A DNA stretch of 57,328 nucleotides from a virus: positions 1 through 57,328 of IMG/VR virus record IMGVR_UViG_3300032208_000014; one strand, given 5' to 3'. Position numbers and translations under genes: made by a program. The notes beneath the pieces are model-generated. The model had not been told where the DNA came from, searched no databases, and saw only the letters and a program-made list of their open reading frames with translations. Shown here piece after piece: positions 1-57,328 of this stretch. The first letter of the stretch is position 1, and each line of letters starts with the position of its first letter.

Positions 1-2
1 AA

Positions 3-8
3 TATAAA
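3..8 (+). promoter_or_regulatory. Possible -10 hexamer at the left end
   Basis: TATAAA lies at bases 3-8. If the map is circular, TTGACG at 57309-57314 sits 16 nt upstream, giving a sigma70-like promoter for the late block. Without the junction only the -10 is present, so the call depends on circularity. Confidence 0.35.
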
Positions 9-71
9 GTGCCTGTAGGAGTCCCTAGGGGGTCTAAAAAATTTCAATTCTAATTTCGTTTGGAGGTTCAG

Positions 72-2051: not shown

Positions 2052-3512
2052 ATGAGTCTTGAGACAGTACCAGAGGAAGTAGCACGCGAGATACTTGCTC
2101 TTCAGCAGCAGACGGTAAAGCTGCACATTCGCGAACAAGCGAAAGAAGAGTTCATGCCGTTTGTACACCATGTGTATGACGGCTTTGTTGAGGGAAGACA
2201 CCACCGCGTTATTGCGGAAAAACTGGAACGAGTAGCAAGGGGCGAGTTGAAGAGGCTCATAGTTAATATGCCTCCTCGTCACAGTAAGTCAGAGTTTGCA
2301 TCTTATTTGATGCCTGCTTGGTTCTTGGGTCGCAACTCAAAGCTCAAGATTATTCAAGCAACGCACAACACCGAGCTTGCCGTAAGGTTTGGTCGTAAGG
2401 TTCGTGACTTGTTAGCTACACCAGATTATCGAGTCGTGTTTCCCGATACCAACCTGAAGGCAGACGATAAGGCGGCTGGACGCTGGGGTACGGCAGAAGG
2501 CGGGGAGTATTTCGCGGCAGGGGTGGGCGCGGCGATGACTGGACGCGGTGCGGATTTGTTAATTATTGATGACCCGCACTCGGAACAGGACGCATTGTCG
2601 TCTACAGCATTTGATCATGCTTTTGAGTGGTACTCATCAGGACCACGACAACGTTTGCAGCCAGGTGGTGCGATCATTATTGTTATGACGCGCTGGGGCA
2701 TGAAAGACTTGACAGGTCAGGTTTTGAAGATGCAGGCGCAGGACTCTATGGCTGACCAATGGGAGGTTGTAGAGTTTCCGGCTATTTTGCCAAGTGACAA
2801 GCCTTTGTGGCCTGAGTTCTGGAAAATGGATGATTTGATTAAGGTCAAGGCATCGCTTCCTGTTGGCAAATGGAATGCGCAATGGCAACAAAATCCGACA
2901 GCCGCCGAAGGGGCGATTGTCAAGAAGGAGTGGTGGAATGTCTGGGAAAAGGAAGATATCCCTTCTGTTAAATACATTATTCAATCATACGATACCGCGT
3001 TTAGCAAAAAGGAAACCGCTGACTATTCTGCTATTACCACTTGGGGAGTATTTGAAAACGAAGAGACAGGAGCAGACAATGTTATACTTATGGATGCGCG
3101 AAGAGGTCGCTGGAATTTTCCAGAACTTAAAGGCGTTGCGGCAGAAGAGTATGAATACTGGGAACCAGATATGGTCATCATTGAAGCGAAAGCTTCAGGG
3201 CAACCGCTGACGGACGAGCTGCGTGCGGCGGGTATACCCGTCATGAACTATACACCAAGCAAAGGTCGTGATAAGATAACGCGTATGCACACAGTTGCTC
3301 CGTTGTTTGAGGCGGGTATGGTGTGGGCACCCGAACAGAAGTTCGCAGATGAGGTTATTGAAGAGTGTCTTGCGTTCCCGCATGGGGAGCATGACGACTT
3401 TGTCGATAGCATGACAATGGCACTGATGCGGTTTAGGCAGGGTGGCTTCATCGAACTAGACGGCGAGAACGACAACGAAAATTGGTATCCTAGGAAGAAG
3501 GAGTATTATTGA
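2052..3512 (+). CDS. terL: Terminase large subunit
   Basis: This 486-residue packaging ATPase-nuclease pumps DNA into the prohead. The ATPase part shows a Walker A-like PPRHSKSE (residues 74-81), Walker B LLIIDDPHSE (169-178) and a coupling motif VMTRW (211-215). The nuclease part keeps acidic residues in SYDTA (D314), IIEAK (E378) and HDDFVDS (D448-D452), the RNase H-like metal site expected of large terminases. Length is normal. The C-terminal part resembles the psiM2 ORF9-type phage terminase family. The stop overlaps the next ATG (TGATG). The small subunit is not next to it but near 52.8 kb, across the window ends. Confidence 0.95.
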   Translation: MSLETVPEEVAREILALQQQTVKLHIREQAKEEFMPFVHHVYDGFVEGRHHRVIAEKLERVARGELKRLIVNMPPRHSKSEFASYLMPAWFLGRNSKLKIIQATHNTELAVRFGRKVRDLLATPDYRVVFPDTNLKADDKAAGRWGTAEGGEYFAAGVGAAMTGRGADLLIIDDPHSEQDALSSTAFDHAFEWYSSGPRQRLQPGGAIIIVMTRWGMKDLTGQVLKMQAQDSMADQWEVVEFPAILPSDKPLWPEFWKMDDLIKVKASLPVGKWNAQWQQNPTAAEGAIVKKEWWNVWEKEDIPSVKYIIQSYDTAFSKKETADYSAITTWGVFENEETGADNVILMDARRGRWNFPELKGVAAEEYEYWEPDMVIIEAKASGQPLTDELRAAGIPVMNYTPSKGRDKITRMHTVAPLFEAGMVWAPEQKFADEVIEECLAFPHGEHDDFVDSMTMALMRFRQGGFIELDGENDNENWYPRKKEYY

Positions 3513-12214: not shown

Positions 12215-12281
12215 GTTGTATAGTTACTTATCCCTGACAGTCGCATGGTGCGGCTGACACTAGCCGAGACAGGAGATTAAA

Positions 12282-12764
12282 TTGGCTAATACAACATTTA
12301 ACGGTCCCGTCCGTTCAGAAAACGGGTTCAAGACAATCATCAAAAACTCCACAACTGGTGCTCTCACCAACGAAATGACTTTGTCTACCTACAGCACTTC
12401 AATCACAATCGCTGCATCTGGTACAGATCATAAAGAATCATCTATTGGTATTCCGTCTAACTTTATTCCTATGGGCGTTGCCATCACAGTAACAAGTGCT
12501 GCGGCTAACAACGTGAACTTGGTTGATATTGGCACAGACGCTGACACAGATGGTTTCGTAGACGGCATCGCTGTTGCTATTAACTCAACAGGGTTCAAAG
12601 GTTTCTTCCCTTGTAACGGTGTACTGGGCATGTCTGGTGGAACAACTACCGCTGCTACAGAGACTGCTGACGAAGTTGAAGTTGTGATTTCCGGCACAGC
12701 AGGTGCTGGTGGCGTTGTTGCTCTGAAGTTCTTTGGTATTGCTTCTGATTCACCAACTGCTTAA
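12282..12764 (+). CDS. Structural protein (TTG start)
   Basis: This 160-residue Thr/Gly/Ala-rich beta protein begins MANTTFNGPVRSENGFK, a start seen in marine phage virion proteins. TTG at 12282 is supported by AGGAG at 12271-12275, 6 nt upstream, with no ATG nearby. It is the first gene after the coat terminator. One cysteine is in FFPCNGV. It is probably a head-decoration or connector-region protein; no motif decides. Confidence 0.7.
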   Translation: MANTTFNGPVRSENGFKTIIKNSTTGALTNEMTLSTYSTSITIAASGTDHKESSIGIPSNFIPMGVAITVTSAAANNVNLVDIGTDADTDGFVDGIAVAINSTGFKGFFPCNGVLGMSGGTTTAATETADEVEVVISGTAGAGGVVALKFFGIASDSPTA

Positions 12765-46475: not shown

Positions 46476-46659
46476 CGGGAAGATGCAGCAAGATTTAAAA
46501 ATGGGACTTTGCCCAAGATGCCGGACAAATATGCCACCCGTAAATGTACACGGGCACACGCAGTGCACTGTATGCCACTTGGTTATAGACGAGTGCTGTC
46601 AAGGCGAAACTGCATCTTGCAACTTTGACACAACAGACAAGGCTGGGTCGCTGTCGTGA
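46453..46659 (+). CDS. Zinc-ribbon miniprotein
   Basis: At 68 residues, two Cys-x2-Cys pairs (LCPRCRTNMPPV and HTQCTVCHLVI) form a zinc ribbon, followed by DECCQGETASC. ATG 46453 has TGGAGA 6 nt upstream (a second ATG at 46447 abuts the site). Found next to SNF2 genes in marine phages, it may help recruit or regulate the helicase, which is inference. Confidence 0.7.
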   Translation: MSQILQGDGKMQQDLKMGLCPRCRTNMPPVNVHGHTQCTVCHLVIDECCQGETASCNFDTTDKAGSLS

Positions 46660-47108
46660 AACTGGAGGTTGTCCCTGTAACTACACGCGAGGCGAATGAG
46701 TTTGTTGCTAATTTTCACAGACACAACAAACCAACTAACGGCGGAAAGTTTTCAATCGGGGCAATTTACGGTGATGAACTTGTCGGAGTTGCTATAGTCG
46801 GGCGACCCGTGGCAAGGATGCTCGATGATGGGTTGACTGTTGAGGTTACCAGAGTTTGCGTTGTAGATCACGCACCCAAAAACACTTGCAGTTTTTTGTA
46901 CGGACGGTGCTGGCGCATCTGGCAACAGATGGGCGGCAAGCGCATGATTACATATACTTTGCAGGAAGAGTCGGGGTCTTCGCTTCGGGGTGCTGGCTGG
47001 AAAATAGTCGGGGAAGTAAAACCCACAGAGCGGGGCTGGGACAGGGATAACCGCAAACGAAATTGGCAACCAATCTACGGACAGATGAAGTTCAGGTGGG
47101 AAGCATGA
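46656..47108 (+). CDS. XF1762-family protein (GNAT-like)
   Basis: At 150 residues from GTG 46656, overlapping the previous stop (GTGA). Key phrases FVANFHRHNKPTNGGKFSIG, VGVAIVGRPVARMLDDG, VEVTRVCVVD and TYTLQEESGSSLRGAGWKIV fit the XF1762 family of phage and prophage proteins, predicted to be acyltransferases with a role in modifying DNA or protecting it. Found beside a PP-loop reductase-like gene here and in other phages. Confidence 0.8.
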   Translation: MKLEVVPVTTREANEFVANFHRHNKPTNGGKFSIGAIYGDELVGVAIVGRPVARMLDDGLTVEVTRVCVVDHAPKNTCSFLYGRCWRIWQQMGGKRMITYTLQEESGSSLRGAGWKIVGEVKPTERGWDRDNRKRNWQPIYGQMKFRWEA

Positions 47109-47887
47109 TTTTATCTTGGTGGTCGGCAGGCGTGACCAGCGCGGTAGCAACTAAACTTGCAATCGACAAATACGGGAAAGACAGAGTGCTGCCCGTCTAC
47201 TTCCATATCGACTCGGCTCACCCAGACAACGAGCGGTTCATTCGGGAGTGCGAGGAGTGGTATGGTCGGGACATCATGATCACCAAGTCGCACAAGCATA
47301 ACAACCAGTTCGAGGTCATCGAGAAAGACAAGTATGTAAACGGTCCTGGGGGTGCACGCTGCACTCTGGTTTTGAAGAAACGGGTTCGGGAGCGGATTGA
47401 ACGGGAGATGGAGTATGAGGCACAGGTCTTCGGGTTCGAGTTTTCCAAGAAAGAAGTCAATCGGGCGGTGCGGTTCAAGGAACAATATCCTGGGTCAAAG
47501 CCCATCTTTCCGCTCATCGAGAAGAAGCTGACCAAGCCGGAGTGTCTGTATTATCTTGAGGCGGCTGGCATCGAGCGACCAGAAATGTATAAGCTTGGCT
47601 ACGGCAACAATAACTGCATCGGTTGCGTAAAAGGCGGCAAAGGGTACTGGAATAAAATCCGCAAAGACTTCCCCGAATATTTTGACCGCATGGCTGCAGC
47701 AGAGCGGCTGGTTGGTAACTCATGCCTGCGTGGTGTGTATCTGGACGAGCTAGATCCAAACTCTGGACACAAGCAGAATTATGTCATGCCTGACTGCGGA
47801 AACTTTTGTGAAATAGAATTTGCAGATATCATGCACAAAGATATAGACTTAATAATGAAGCAACCAGAACAGTTGAGTTTATTCTAA
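47105..47887 (+). CDS. PP-loop (PAPS reductase-like) protein with C-terminal clamp motif
   Basis: At 260 residues, the PP-loop ATP-pyrophosphatase signature is SWWSAGVTSAVATK (residues 4-17), with HIDSAHPDNERF after it. Cys pairs in NNNCIGCVKGG and MPDCGNFCEIEF suggest an Fe-S or zinc site. The last five residues are QLSLF, the consensus peptide by which proteins bind the bacterial beta sliding clamp. ATG 47105 overlaps the previous stop. PP-loop enzymes of this type act in sulfur chemistry, including DNA phosphorothioation; a DNA-modifying role is likely but unproven. Confidence 0.85.
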   Translation: MILSWWSAGVTSAVATKLAIDKYGKDRVLPVYFHIDSAHPDNERFIRECEEWYGRDIMITKSHKHNNQFEVIEKDKYVNGPGGARCTLVLKKRVRERIEREMEYEAQVFGFEFSKKEVNRAVRFKEQYPGSKPIFPLIEKKLTKPECLYYLEAAGIERPEMYKLGYGNNNCIGCVKGGKGYWNKIRKDFPEYFDRMAAAERLVGNSCLRGVYLDELDPNSGHKQNYVMPDCGNFCEIEFADIMHKDIDLIMKQPEQLSLF

Positions 47888-50578: not shown

Positions 50579-50684
50579 TTTTACCTCCGTAAATTTGAAA
50601 CCAATGGTCAGTGCAGTACGCCCGATTTCCATCGAGCGCATCCGCCTTTTTATCGCATTTATCGCATTTTCTGATACTAAGCAT
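50481..50684 (-). CDS. Small Cys-rich protein after the methyltransferase
   Basis: At 67 residues, ATG 50684 overlaps the methyltransferase stop. It reads MLSIRKCDKCDKKADALDGN, RAYCTDHWFQIYGGK. Cys-x2-Cys followed by a Cys-x2-His suggests a treble-clef-like zinc site. The second half overlaps 50390-50578 in another frame and looks less protein-like, so the true end may differ. Confidence 0.5.
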   Translation of the reverse strand: MLSIRKCDKCDKKADALDGNRAYCTDHWFQIYGGKNGKSQGMADGYGRGRDGHEPRSVGREAWYVVR

Positions 50685-51813
50685 TCATCCCCCTCATCAA
50701 GTGACAGATAACATCAACCGTCCATCCATTACCAAGCATACGATACCGCTGGGTATTTGACACATGATTTGTGTAATTTTCTGGAACGGTCTGTAAACGC
50801 TCACATTCTAAAGGCGTAAGCTTACGCCATTGAAGCTGGTCAATGTCAGCCACAATGCTGTCCTTATATATGGTGGACAGACAATTCGACTTCTCATCTT
50901 CTCGCACCTCGACCCTTGATTTGAGGGGAATGGACTTGTCGTTATCTTTGCGCTTGCCATTCTCATCGAGCCTGCGTTTCACGATCCTCGCACCTCGAAG
51001 CAACACTTTTGGTTCAAGATTGCCACCAGATGCCGCGCACAAACTTGGGGCTTTGCCGTCTGGATCATAAACCCTGCGATTATAATCGTGACCCTTCAAG
51101 TCTGCGTGCCCAGCCAATATCAAGCCTGTGCCATCCAACTCCATGTCGAACACAAGCTGTCTGCGATTTTTCTGAAAATATGACTTCAGATTACCGCCCT
51201 TGAAATAGTTCGCATCTATGCAATGCGACTTGTCACGGTCAGTCCAGCCATCTTCGAGAATATCTTTGAGCATGATATTTCGGTTGCGTGGTGCACCCTC
51301 GACAGGGATGTTTGTCCAATACAGGCGGTCACGATTTTGCGCTGACACCAGATTAGAATTTATCCTGATAGGTTCGACCCCAAGCTGACTGGAAATTACA
51401 TCCTGATATTCCTGTTTCATATTAACATTCTCAAGCAGGAAATATTTTGGCTTCAACTCCCTCAACAGGCGCACATATTCAAAAAACAATTTACTGCGTG
51501 GGTCGTCAAAGTTCAGTTGCTTGCCAGCAAACGAAAACCCCTGACAGGGCGAACCGCCAATCAATATGTCTATCGTGTGTCGAAAGAAACCCTTTTCGAG
51601 GTCAACACCATTATGAGCGACACACAAACGCCCATCCTTGGTTTTAAGTTTGGTCACATCGCCCATGTGTATCGTGTCAGGATAATTGGCCTTCGCAACT
51701 TGGATTGCATATTTGTCAATTTCTGACGCGAAATAATTTTCGACCTTGAAGCCGCACCGCTCAAGAGCGATGCGACCACAAGACATTCCATCAAATAAAC
51801 TAAGAACGTTCAT
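50677..51813 (-). CDS. DNA (cytosine-5) methyltransferase
   Basis: At 378 residues, it shows motif I LSLFDGMSCGRIALERCGF, motif IV GGSPCQGFSFAG with catalytic Cys90, motif VI LLENVN, motif VIII QNRDRLYWTN, motif IX KLTPLECERLQTVPENYT and motif X YRMLGNGWTVDVICHL. All parts of an active Dcm/DNMT-type enzyme are present. The target-recognition region is about residues 185-310. It probably methylates phage DNA against host restriction; no restriction enzyme is beside it. Confidence 0.9.
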   Translation of the reverse strand: MNVLSLFDGMSCGRIALERCGFKVENYFASEIDKYAIQVAKANYPDTIHMGDVTKLKTKDGRLCVAHNGVDLEKGFFRHTIDILIGGSPCQGFSFAGKQLNFDDPRSKLFFEYVRLLRELKPKYFLLENVNMKQEYQDVISSQLGVEPIRINSNLVSAQNRDRLYWTNIPVEGAPRNRNIMLKDILEDGWTDRDKSHCIDANYFKGGNLKSYFQKNRRQLVFDMELDGTGLILAGHADLKGHDYNRRVYDPDGKAPSLCAASGGNLEPKVLLRGARIVKRRLDENGKRKDNDKSIPLKSRVEVREDEKSNCLSTIYKDSIVADIDQLQWRKLTPLECERLQTVPENYTNHVSNTQRYRMLGNGWTVDVICHLMRGMNA

Positions 51814-52496: not shown

Positions 52497-52785
52497 GTTT
52501 GTCACGTTTGTCACATATATAGAAGGATTTCCTGAAAAAAAAAAAATAAAAAAAATATTTCCAGACGGTGTGACAAGTGTGACAAGTGTGACAAGGGGGG
52601 TTAAACACATGAAAAACAACAATACTGCTTGTCACGTTTGTGTCACGTTTGTCACGGTACTAAGGGGGTTTTGGTATTTTCCCATATATATAGCTTGTGG
52701 AATTATGTCTAAGTTTTTGCTAAAACAGGGGGAGAAGTGTGACAAGTGTGACAAATTGAGAGGACAACCGTGACAAGTGTGACAA
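52497..52785. repeat. Iteron-like array of TTGTCAC/GTGACAA with an A-tract
   Basis: Eleven perfect copies of the heptamer TTGTCAC (on either strand) lie in 289 bp. Plus-strand copies are at 52499, 52508, 52629 and 52649. Inverted copies GTGACAA are at 52570, 52579, 52588, 52739, 52748, 52770 and 52779, mostly as 9-bp tandem units. A run of A with few T (52535-52557) lies between the first groups. No convincing gene fills 52420-52769: the frame that spans it is just repeated Val-Thr-x codons. The array ends inside the first codons of terS. It could be a replication origin, packaging site or operator. Confidence 0.75.
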
Positions 52786-53321
52786 CAATAGAAGAGGACG
52801 ACAAACAGGTAAATAATCGCCAGCGCGAATTTGCTCGTTATTATGTGGAGGGCATATATTCAAATGCTGAATGTGCTAGAAAAGCTGGTTACTCTCCTGC
52901 CTCTGCCATGTCGATGGCATCTAAATTATTGAACGGCTCATATGCTCCTCATGTTGTGGAGTATATACAAGAACTCCGACAGGAACGTGAAAGGCGATAT
53001 GGCGTGACCGTCATTGGTCAGCTGAAAAGACTGGACGAACTTTCGAGAGGGGCTGAAGATGCTGGTCAATTCTCAGCTGCAATCAACGCTGAAAAAATCC
53101 GTTCCGCTCTGGGTGGGTTGACTGTCGATAGACGAGAACAAATCCACCAGCTTGACGATATGACAAAAGAAGATATCGCCCTGCGGCTCAGTGAACTTCG
53201 GAAGCAATATCCGCAGGCGTTTATCGAGGGTACATATACGGAGAAAACGGATGCTAGAGAAAAACTTTTGGTCAGCAGTAAAGAAGAACCTGCCACCGAA
53301 ATCCTTTCCGACACGGATTGA
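52770..53321 (+). CDS. terS: Terminase small subunit
   Basis: This 183-residue DNA-recognition subunit has conserved QREFARYYVEGIYSNAECAR, KAGYSPASAMSMASKLLNGS, EYIQELRQERERRYGVTVIG, RLDELSRGAEDAGQFSAAIN and AEKIRSALGGLTVDRREQ, typical of a phage small terminase with an N-terminal helix-turn-helix and helical oligomerisation core. GTG 52770 lies within the repeat array, so the protein could control itself. It sits on a plus-strand island inside minus-strand genes and is about 6 kb from terL only if the ends join. Confidence 0.88.
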   Translation: MTSVTTIEEDDKQVNNRQREFARYYVEGIYSNAECARKAGYSPASAMSMASKLLNGSYAPHVVEYIQELRQERERRYGVTVIGQLKRLDELSRGAEDAGQFSAAINAEKIRSALGGLTVDRREQIHQLDDMTKEDIALRLSELRKQYPQAFIEGTYTEKTDAREKLLVSSKEEPATEILSDTD

Positions 53322-56842: not shown

Positions 56843-57085
56843 TTATTTCCAAGTAAACATTTTGCGTGTTTGCGTGTATGCCTCTTTAGCGGCATATTGA
56901 AAATCCTGCTCTTGATAAAAAGCATAGCCTGCGTCAACCGCTAGCGACTGCGTGTCTTTCAAGCGAGCTTGTGTTTTCTTGATAATTTCCTTCAGGTGAT
57001 AAACCTCAGCCTGCATGGCCTCTTTGTCACCTGAAGTAGCTAATTTCTTAGCGGCAGTTAAGTCTTTTTGGATTTGATGTAACAT
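56843..57085 (-). CDS. Helical coiled-coil protein, first gene of the right arm
   Basis: At 80 residues (MLHQIQKDLTAAKKLATSGD, EVYHLKEIIKKTQARLKDTQ), helical and Lys/Gln-rich. ATG 57085 has GGAGG upstream, and its promoter is at 57123-57151. The first gene read leftward from the palindrome array, so probably early. Function unknown. Confidence 0.65.
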   Translation of the reverse strand: MLHQIQKDLTAAKKLATSGDKEAMQAEVYHLKEIIKKTQARLKDTQSLAVDAGYAFYQEQDFQYAAKEAYTQTRKMFTWK

Positions 57086-57122
57086 AATCTTACCTCCATA
57101 GTTTGGTTATGTTTACCTAGTA

Positions 57123-57151
57123 AACATAATACTTAAACATATAAAAAACAA
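57123..57151 (-). promoter_or_regulatory. Sigma70-like promoter, minus strand
   Basis: TTGTTT, 17-nt spacer, TATGTT (same -10 as at 44788). It reads leftward into the gene at 57085 and lies about 20 nt from the first palindrome of the array. Confidence 0.75.
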
Positions 57152-57172: not shown

Positions 57173-57313
57173 GTCAAACGTTTGACAGGCTCGGCTGGTC
57201 CTGGCGTCAAATTACTGACGCGTTTGTCAAATTATTGACTTGACAAGGGGTTACTTGGGGTATTTCGGACGGGTCGTCAAATTATTGACACCCCACCCCG
57301 TCAAATTTTTGAC
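57173..57313. repeat. Array of five 14-bp palindromic GTCAAA sites
   Basis: Five sites of the form GTCAAxxxxxTGAC start at 57173, 57206, 57226, 57276 and 57300. The first (GTCAAACGTTTGAC) is a perfect palindrome; two are GTCAAATTATTGAC. Gaps between starts are 33, 20, 50 and 24 bp. TTGAC half-sites resemble -35 boxes. No gene lies in 57086-57328. Probably an operator or origin cluster controlling divergent transcription. Confidence 0.8.
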
Positions 57314-57328
57314 GGGTCTGTGCCGCCC

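What the first reader, a model, noticed from the sequence alone, without database searches (positions are those of the whole stretch)
57173..57313. Five-site palindrome array at the right end
Five 14-bp sites with GTCAA and TGAC half-sites lie in 141 bp between a leftward gene and the window end. This looks like a cooperative operator or an initiator-binding origin. No phage repressor was recognised; AlpA-like and RHH-like proteins are candidates.
Basis: seen in the sequence. Interest (0 to 1): 0.78.

Follow-up and report, generated by a model that had tools for sequence, protein, structure and literature searches.

The report
Operator-like sites at phage genome end
A marine phage carries five copies of a short mirror-image DNA site at the junction between its leftward and rightward genes, right beside what looks like the place where its DNA is cut for packaging; the sites look like ordinary docking points for a control protein that is still unidentified.

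Summary
The five sites are real: four exact copies of GTCAA-N4-TTGAC and one with one mismatch, at the stated places. The four exact copies are the only ones in the window (0.06 expected). The right edge is not a natural gap: a close relative (L244) reads straight through it, so the window's two ends are neighbours with 81 bp missing. In relatives the spot is a conserved block about 2 kb upstream of terL. Metagenome contigs repeatedly stop there at one nucleotide, and others start about 13 nt before it, as a lambda-like cos site with a ~13-nt 5' overhang would give; this is inferred, not shown. The sites fall into two modules. Promoter-side sites keep one AT-rich flank although their distance to the conserved core varies; a cos-side site sits 28-31 nt from the core start. 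The set arose once in the TerL tree and was lost at least three times, while the core stayed. In a sister group similar arrays lie about 190 nt from the same core. I read it as an operator array for the leftward operon, with extra copies inside the cos block. Packaging-protein sites are the main rival. Nothing favours an origin; the RHH protein is unlikely and no AlpA domain was found. The binding protein is unknown.

The parts
57173..57186 (.). site 1, GTCAAACGTTTGAC, perfect palindrome, promoter-side
   Evidence: homologous position -75 from core in L244
57206..57219 (.). site 2, GTCAAATTACTGAC (one mismatch to GTCAA-N4-TTGAC)
57226..57239 (.). site 3, GTCAAATTATTGAC, just left of the conserved core (start 22 nt before core start)
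57248..57258 (+). conserved core GGGTTACTTGG of the cos-like block, kept in relatives with and without GTCAA sites
57276..57289 (.). site 4 ('B'), GTCAAATTATTGAC, starts 28 nt after core start; fixed at +28 to +31 in relatives
57300..57313 (.). site 5, GTCAAATTTTTGAC, replaces a conserved CCCCTTGACA half-site of most close relatives
57320..57328 (+). last bases of the record, GTGCCGCCC; in relative L244 the next 13 nt are CACCCTCCCGCCC, the proposed cohesive-end sequence (absent from this record)
57107..57129 (.). separate perfect inverted repeat TTATGTTTAC-CTA-GTAAACATAA between the array and the leftward gene; operator or leader hairpin, not tested
56843..57085 (-). first gene of the leftward operon, 80 aa, no family; nearest gene to the array
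1..59 (+). left-end side of the same block; GGAGTCCC at 18-25, an element found at this place in the 15 relatives checked and mostly nowhere else in the stretches searched
2052..3512 (+). terminase large subunit
   Evidence: phrog_38, E 5.6e-106
52770..53321 (+). terminase small subunit, candidate binder in the rival reading
   Evidence: PF03592, E 7.1e-11

Best explanation
The array is a set of binding sites for one two-fold symmetric DNA-binding protein, acting as a transcriptional operator at the junction where the leftward (presumed early) operon starts, a junction that is also the phage's cos-like genome end. Promoter-side sites carry a -35-like TTGACA pointing left, so bound protein would cover the leftward promoter region and turn it down (or up, if it is an activator). 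In the window's clade one or more copies also sit inside the cos-like block at a fixed distance from its core, so the same protein would occupy DNA next to the cut site. Shown here: the sites, their clustering, the two kinds of spacing, gain and loss as a set, and the continuity of the window's ends. Inferred: that a protein binds, that binding regulates transcription, that the block is a cos site.
For: Symmetric 14-mers, clustered. Divergent junction. In 25 of 28 rows listed (window included) an upstream site precedes the core; at distances from -14 to -105 most of these keep the same leftward flank (TTGAC followed by an AT-rich stretch of the type AAATTAAATGTATTTTATTTGTT), so these sites follow the leftward promoter side rather than the core. 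TerL tree: label changes 4 (3 forced) among 31 rows, 1 of 500 shuffles as low; most simply one gain and at least three losses; the B- members inside the B+ clade (L141, L145, L167, L179) have no GTCAA site near the core at all, while the core stays. In a sister group (TerL 66-69%) the cos-like block is kept but the array lies about 190 nt to the left of it. Other palindromes sit in the same place in some relatives without GTCAA sites, e.g. TTAGAC-N4-GTCTAA in L190, as in operator-specificity switching.
Against: No canonical -10 box follows the TTGACA in the window, and the sigma-70 scan found no site there. No regulator gene tracks the sites: none of the window's proteins that I compared is in all site-bearing and no site-free relatives. 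Site B lies on the far side of the core from the leftward gene, at rigid spacing, which an operator does not need. Binding, expression timing and cooperativity are untested.
Confidence: 0.5

Rival explanations
1. The sites are part of the packaging signal: TerS (or a host DNA-bending protein) binds the palindromes flanking the core and positions TerL to make the staggered cut just to the right, like cosB/cosQ of lambda or (recalled) pac of SPP1.
For: Site B is fixed at +28 to +31 from the core start in 27 of 36 distinct segments, the other 9 lacking it (many of these contigs were selected with a pattern that includes site B, but the 11 TerL-selected B+ relatives agree), and the core lies 94-96 nt from the proposed cut in the 21 of 45 segments where the anchor could be read. 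Contig ends pile up at the cut. TerS is the only recognised DNA-binding protein with a hit in all eight compared relatives. In loci with such arrays and a detectable terL, the array is upstream of terL in 39 of 41 cases.
Against: The sites were lost at least three times among close relatives that keep the core, and in the sister group they lie about 190 nt away from the core; an essential packaging site should not be so dispensable. TerS is also present in relatives without the sites. TerL-upstream placement is not significant when 9 TerL groups are the unit.
Confidence: 0.28
2. Replication origin: the palindromes bind an initiator or host DnaA-like protein.
For: Intergenic, near a strand and skew switch; TTATCCACA, the recalled DnaA box, precedes the core in relatives L215 and L216.
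Against: Skew follows gene strand everywhere in the window; no such box in the window array; iteron-type repeats lie at terS instead.
Confidence: 0.08
3. The contig-end pile-up at CACCC[TA]CCCGCCC is a sequencing or assembly artefact (G-runs on the bottom strand that could form a quadruplex, or strain branching), so the block is not cos but an ordinary promoter/leader region. This rival concerns the cos inference and is not exclusive of the others.
For: The reverse complement GGGCGGG[AT]GGGTG is G-run rich; most clade contigs that hold core and site B cross the spot; three further contigs end 60-110 nt beyond it (L254, L257, L281), and the window itself starts near there.
Against: Right ends of L038, L266, L269 and L280 stop at the same nucleotide with different flanks, left ends start about 13 nt earlier; dropout would be ragged and would not give an overlap of this kind.
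Confidence: 0.25

Closest known systems
Lambdoid cos (cosQ-cosN-cosB), phages lambda, 21, N15
   Same: About 200-bp block near the terminase genes; TerS and IHF sites flank the nick site; 12-base 5' extensions in lambda-like phages (PMC4669245, passages read). Here a ~180-bp conserved block, flanking sites and an inferred ~13-nt 5' overhang.
   Different: GTCAA sites lie on the side away from terL; sites are palindromic and dispensable; terS is 4.5 kb away; no binding shown.
HK97 cos
   Same: TerS site close to a defined cleavage position (PMC11331095, passages read).
   Different: HK97 uses one 15-bp site and a 10-nt 3' overhang; the contig ends here fit a filled-in 5' overhang.
Operator arrays of phage repressors such as 434 (recalled: ACAA...TTGT 14-mers in sets)
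   Same: 14-bp two-fold symmetric sites repeated at a divergent junction.
   Different: No repressor recognised among the proteins scanned; binder unknown; some sites lie in the packaging block.
Roseophage R4C cos
   Same: Marine phage with a 14-bp 5' protruding cohesive end near the terminase genes (PMC6836515, passages read).
   Different: A siphophage whose cos lies upstream of terS; no palindrome array was mentioned in the passages I read.

Membership tests
Phage operator array | Repeated symmetric sites, more than chance | tested here: met
Phage operator array | Sites overlap or abut a promoter they control | tested here: inconclusive
   TTGACA half-sites with a conserved flank, but no canonical -10
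Phage operator array | Cognate DNA-binding protein encoded by the phage | tested here: inconclusive
   no protein of the window follows presence of the sites; RHH fails in both directions; small divergent proteins could be missed, and a host protein would not show
cos packaging site | Unique physical genome terminus with complementary overhangs | tested here: inconclusive
   contig-end pile-up with ~13-nt overlap; no reads from virion DNA
cos packaging site | TerS-binding sites next to the cut | not testable with these tools
   needs a binding assay
cos packaging site | Conserved block near the terminase genes | tested here: met
   core to GGAGTCCC spacing mostly 158-186 nt (two at 262, one at 311) in 45 segments; about 2 kb upstream of terL
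Initiator-binding origin | Initiation of replication at the site | not testable with these tools
   skew uninformative

The most novel reading that the evidence does not exclude
A single protein occupies both the leftward promoter and the DNA beside the cos cut site through the same palindrome, coupling shut-off of early transcription to the start of packaging; the coupling sites were acquired once in this clade and are replaced by other palindromes in some relatives.
Probability: 0.15. Interest if true: 0.7.

Novelty: new member of a known kind. Interest (0 to 1): 0.42.

Why it matters
It gives an uncultured marine phage group a concrete control region and a likely genome end, found from contig ends alone. 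If sites for one protein do sit both at an early promoter and inside a cos block, the switch from expression to packaging becomes testable in one short DNA segment.

Tried and rejected
The loci and the control loci were not analysed further.

One shared regulator beside arrays in other phages: the 115 array-flanking proteins that I scanned, of 228 references listed, are heterogeneous; XRE-type HTH_3 matches 3 of 115.

Array position at contig ends in general: 8 of 138 clusters within 150 nt of an end against 3.8 expected, p=0.04; not used as support.

IHF site: GTCAANNNNTTG resembles the recalled IHF consensus WATCAANNNNTTR, but the outer G and the two-fold symmetry do not fit; not tested.

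RNA families: only Mu-gpT-DE elsewhere. Papers: two HTVC023P/HTVC027P papers gave nothing on promoters, motifs or cos in the passages searched. A search for papers holding GTCAA, TTGAC, phage and palindrom gave two unrelated listings. PhageTerm (PMC5557969) was seen as a search listing only.

Full report
Observation. The right end of the record holds five 14-bp sites, four exact GTCAA-N4-TTGAC and one with a single mismatch. The exact form occurs four times in the window, all here, against 0.06 expected. The record is a virus contig of 57,328 bp classed as linear, meaning only that no end repeat was found.

The window edge. Contig L139 is 100% identical to the window over 12,325 bp but starts 77 nt further left. 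Contig L244, a close relative (97.5% over the last 158 nt of the window, 99.3% over 430 nt of L139), reads from the array into the left end. Between the last base of the window and the first base of L139 it has four bases. The window's ends are therefore neighbours, and 81 bp are missing. The array lies between a leftward set of small genes and, across the missing stretch, a rightward set with a GNAT protein, terL and portal.

Conserved block. In TerL relatives the homologous region, about 2 kb upstream of terL, holds GGGTTACTTGG and, mostly 158-186 nt later (two at 262, one at 311), GGAGTCCC (32 relatives; 45 distinct segments). The core to the last C before TAG (the anchor) is 94-96 nt in the 21 of 45 segments where that anchor could be read by pattern. 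The 13-mer before the anchor is CACCC[TA]CCC[GAC]CCC in most of these and is replaced by unrelated sequence in other relatives at similar overall spacing, for example L145 and L189.

Contig ends. Of the contigs holding the core and site B, ten end within 600 nt after the core; three of these (L266, L269, L280) end at the anchor nucleotide. For ten uniformly placed ends, three within any 3 nt has probability 0.006, and three in a window fixed beforehand 2.5e-5. I defined that window after seeing the left ends, so the first figure is the safer one. L038, found by another scan, ends at the same nucleotide. The window and L282 end about 13 nt earlier. On the other side, four of four contigs that hold the GGAGTCCC pattern and start within 600 nt upstream start within a 9-nt interval (L139, L148, L161, L237; probability 1e-5 if uniform), and L200 and L153 start close by. 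Right ends reach the anchor and left ends begin up to 13 nt before it (L200 about 15), which fits filled-in 5' overhangs of about 13 nt, as in lambda-like cos sites. Against this, most of the clade contigs cross the spot, three contigs end 60-110 nt beyond it, and the stretch is G-run rich on the bottom strand. The 55-kb contig of L161 has one end at the 13-mer; its other end stops short of where the array should begin, not at the anchor. I treat cos as likely, not shown.

Two modules. Site B starts 28-31 nt after the core start in 27 of 36 distinct segments, and the other 9 lack it; many of these contigs were selected with a pattern that includes site B, but the 11 TerL-selected B+ relatives agree. 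The upstream site lies at -14 to -165 in 25 of 28 listed rows, and most of them share one leftward flank after TTGAC despite that variation (the clearest exceptions are L150, L208, L172, L255 and L280). Upstream sites thus follow the leftward promoter side, and site B follows the core.

Evolution. On a TerL tree of 31 rows, site B needs four changes (three forced by supported branches), most simply one gain and three losses: L141, L145, and L167 with L179. These four have no GTCAA site at all near the core. In a sister group with TerL 66-69% identical the core-like GGGGTTACT and AAATTCATT remain 105 nt apart, against 103-104 for the core to ATTYATT in six window-clade contigs, but the array lies 188-194 nt left of the core. 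A third group (TerL about 40-43%) has an array upstream of terS with a GGAGTC element beyond it. Over all loci with array and terL, the array is upstream of terL in 39 of 41 cases, but this is not significant at the level of 9 TerL groups.

Who binds. Eight long relatives were compared with the window's proteins. The RHH protein is missing from G010, which has sites, and present in G007, which has none. TerS is present in all eight. Of 36 small window proteins only RHH_5 and Terminase_2 are recognisable DNA-binding families. A host protein or an unrecognised small protein remains possible.

Reading. The gain and loss as a set and the tie to the leftward flank speak for an operator; the rigid site B speaks for a second role in, or at least accommodation within, the cos-like block. 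I give 0.5 to the operator reading, 0.28 to packaging sites and 0.08 to an origin; the artefact rival concerns the cos inference and is not exclusive of these. The most novel open reading is one protein serving both promoter and cos.

Noticed in passing
window 52498-52785: A second, different array around the start of terS: 9-bp units TTGTCACGT/GTGTGACAA in both orientations in five clusters. In relatives the unit changes as a set (GTGTAACAA, GTGTTACAA, GTGGGACAA, ACGTTACGG and others) at the same place, apparently independent of the GTCAA sites.
   Followed up: partly
window 57107-57129: Perfect 10-3-10 inverted repeat in the leader of the leftward gene; some relatives have a different repeat (TTAATGTC...GACATTAA) in the corresponding leader.
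   Followed up: no
L140 7228-7310, L141, L160, L252: Conserved leader GGGGTCGC...GCC...CCGATTTCCC before the first leftward gene in relatives, absent from the window; possible structured RNA.
   Followed up: no
window 12232-12284: Rfam Mu-gpT-DE RNA match downstream of the capsid gene.
   Followed up: no
window 46656-47887: Mom-like DNA modification protein next to a PAPS reductase-like protein, and a DNA methyltransferase at 50677-51813.
   Followed up: no
window start; L254 and L281 right ends: A second coincidence of contig ends near +81 from the 13-mer, at an imperfect palindrome ACAAATTAATTGT in relatives.
   Followed up: no
L032, L121, L048, L044, L077, L110: Contigs with several separate GTCAA-N4-TTGAC clusters in one phage, as in a multi-operator regulon.
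   Followed up: no
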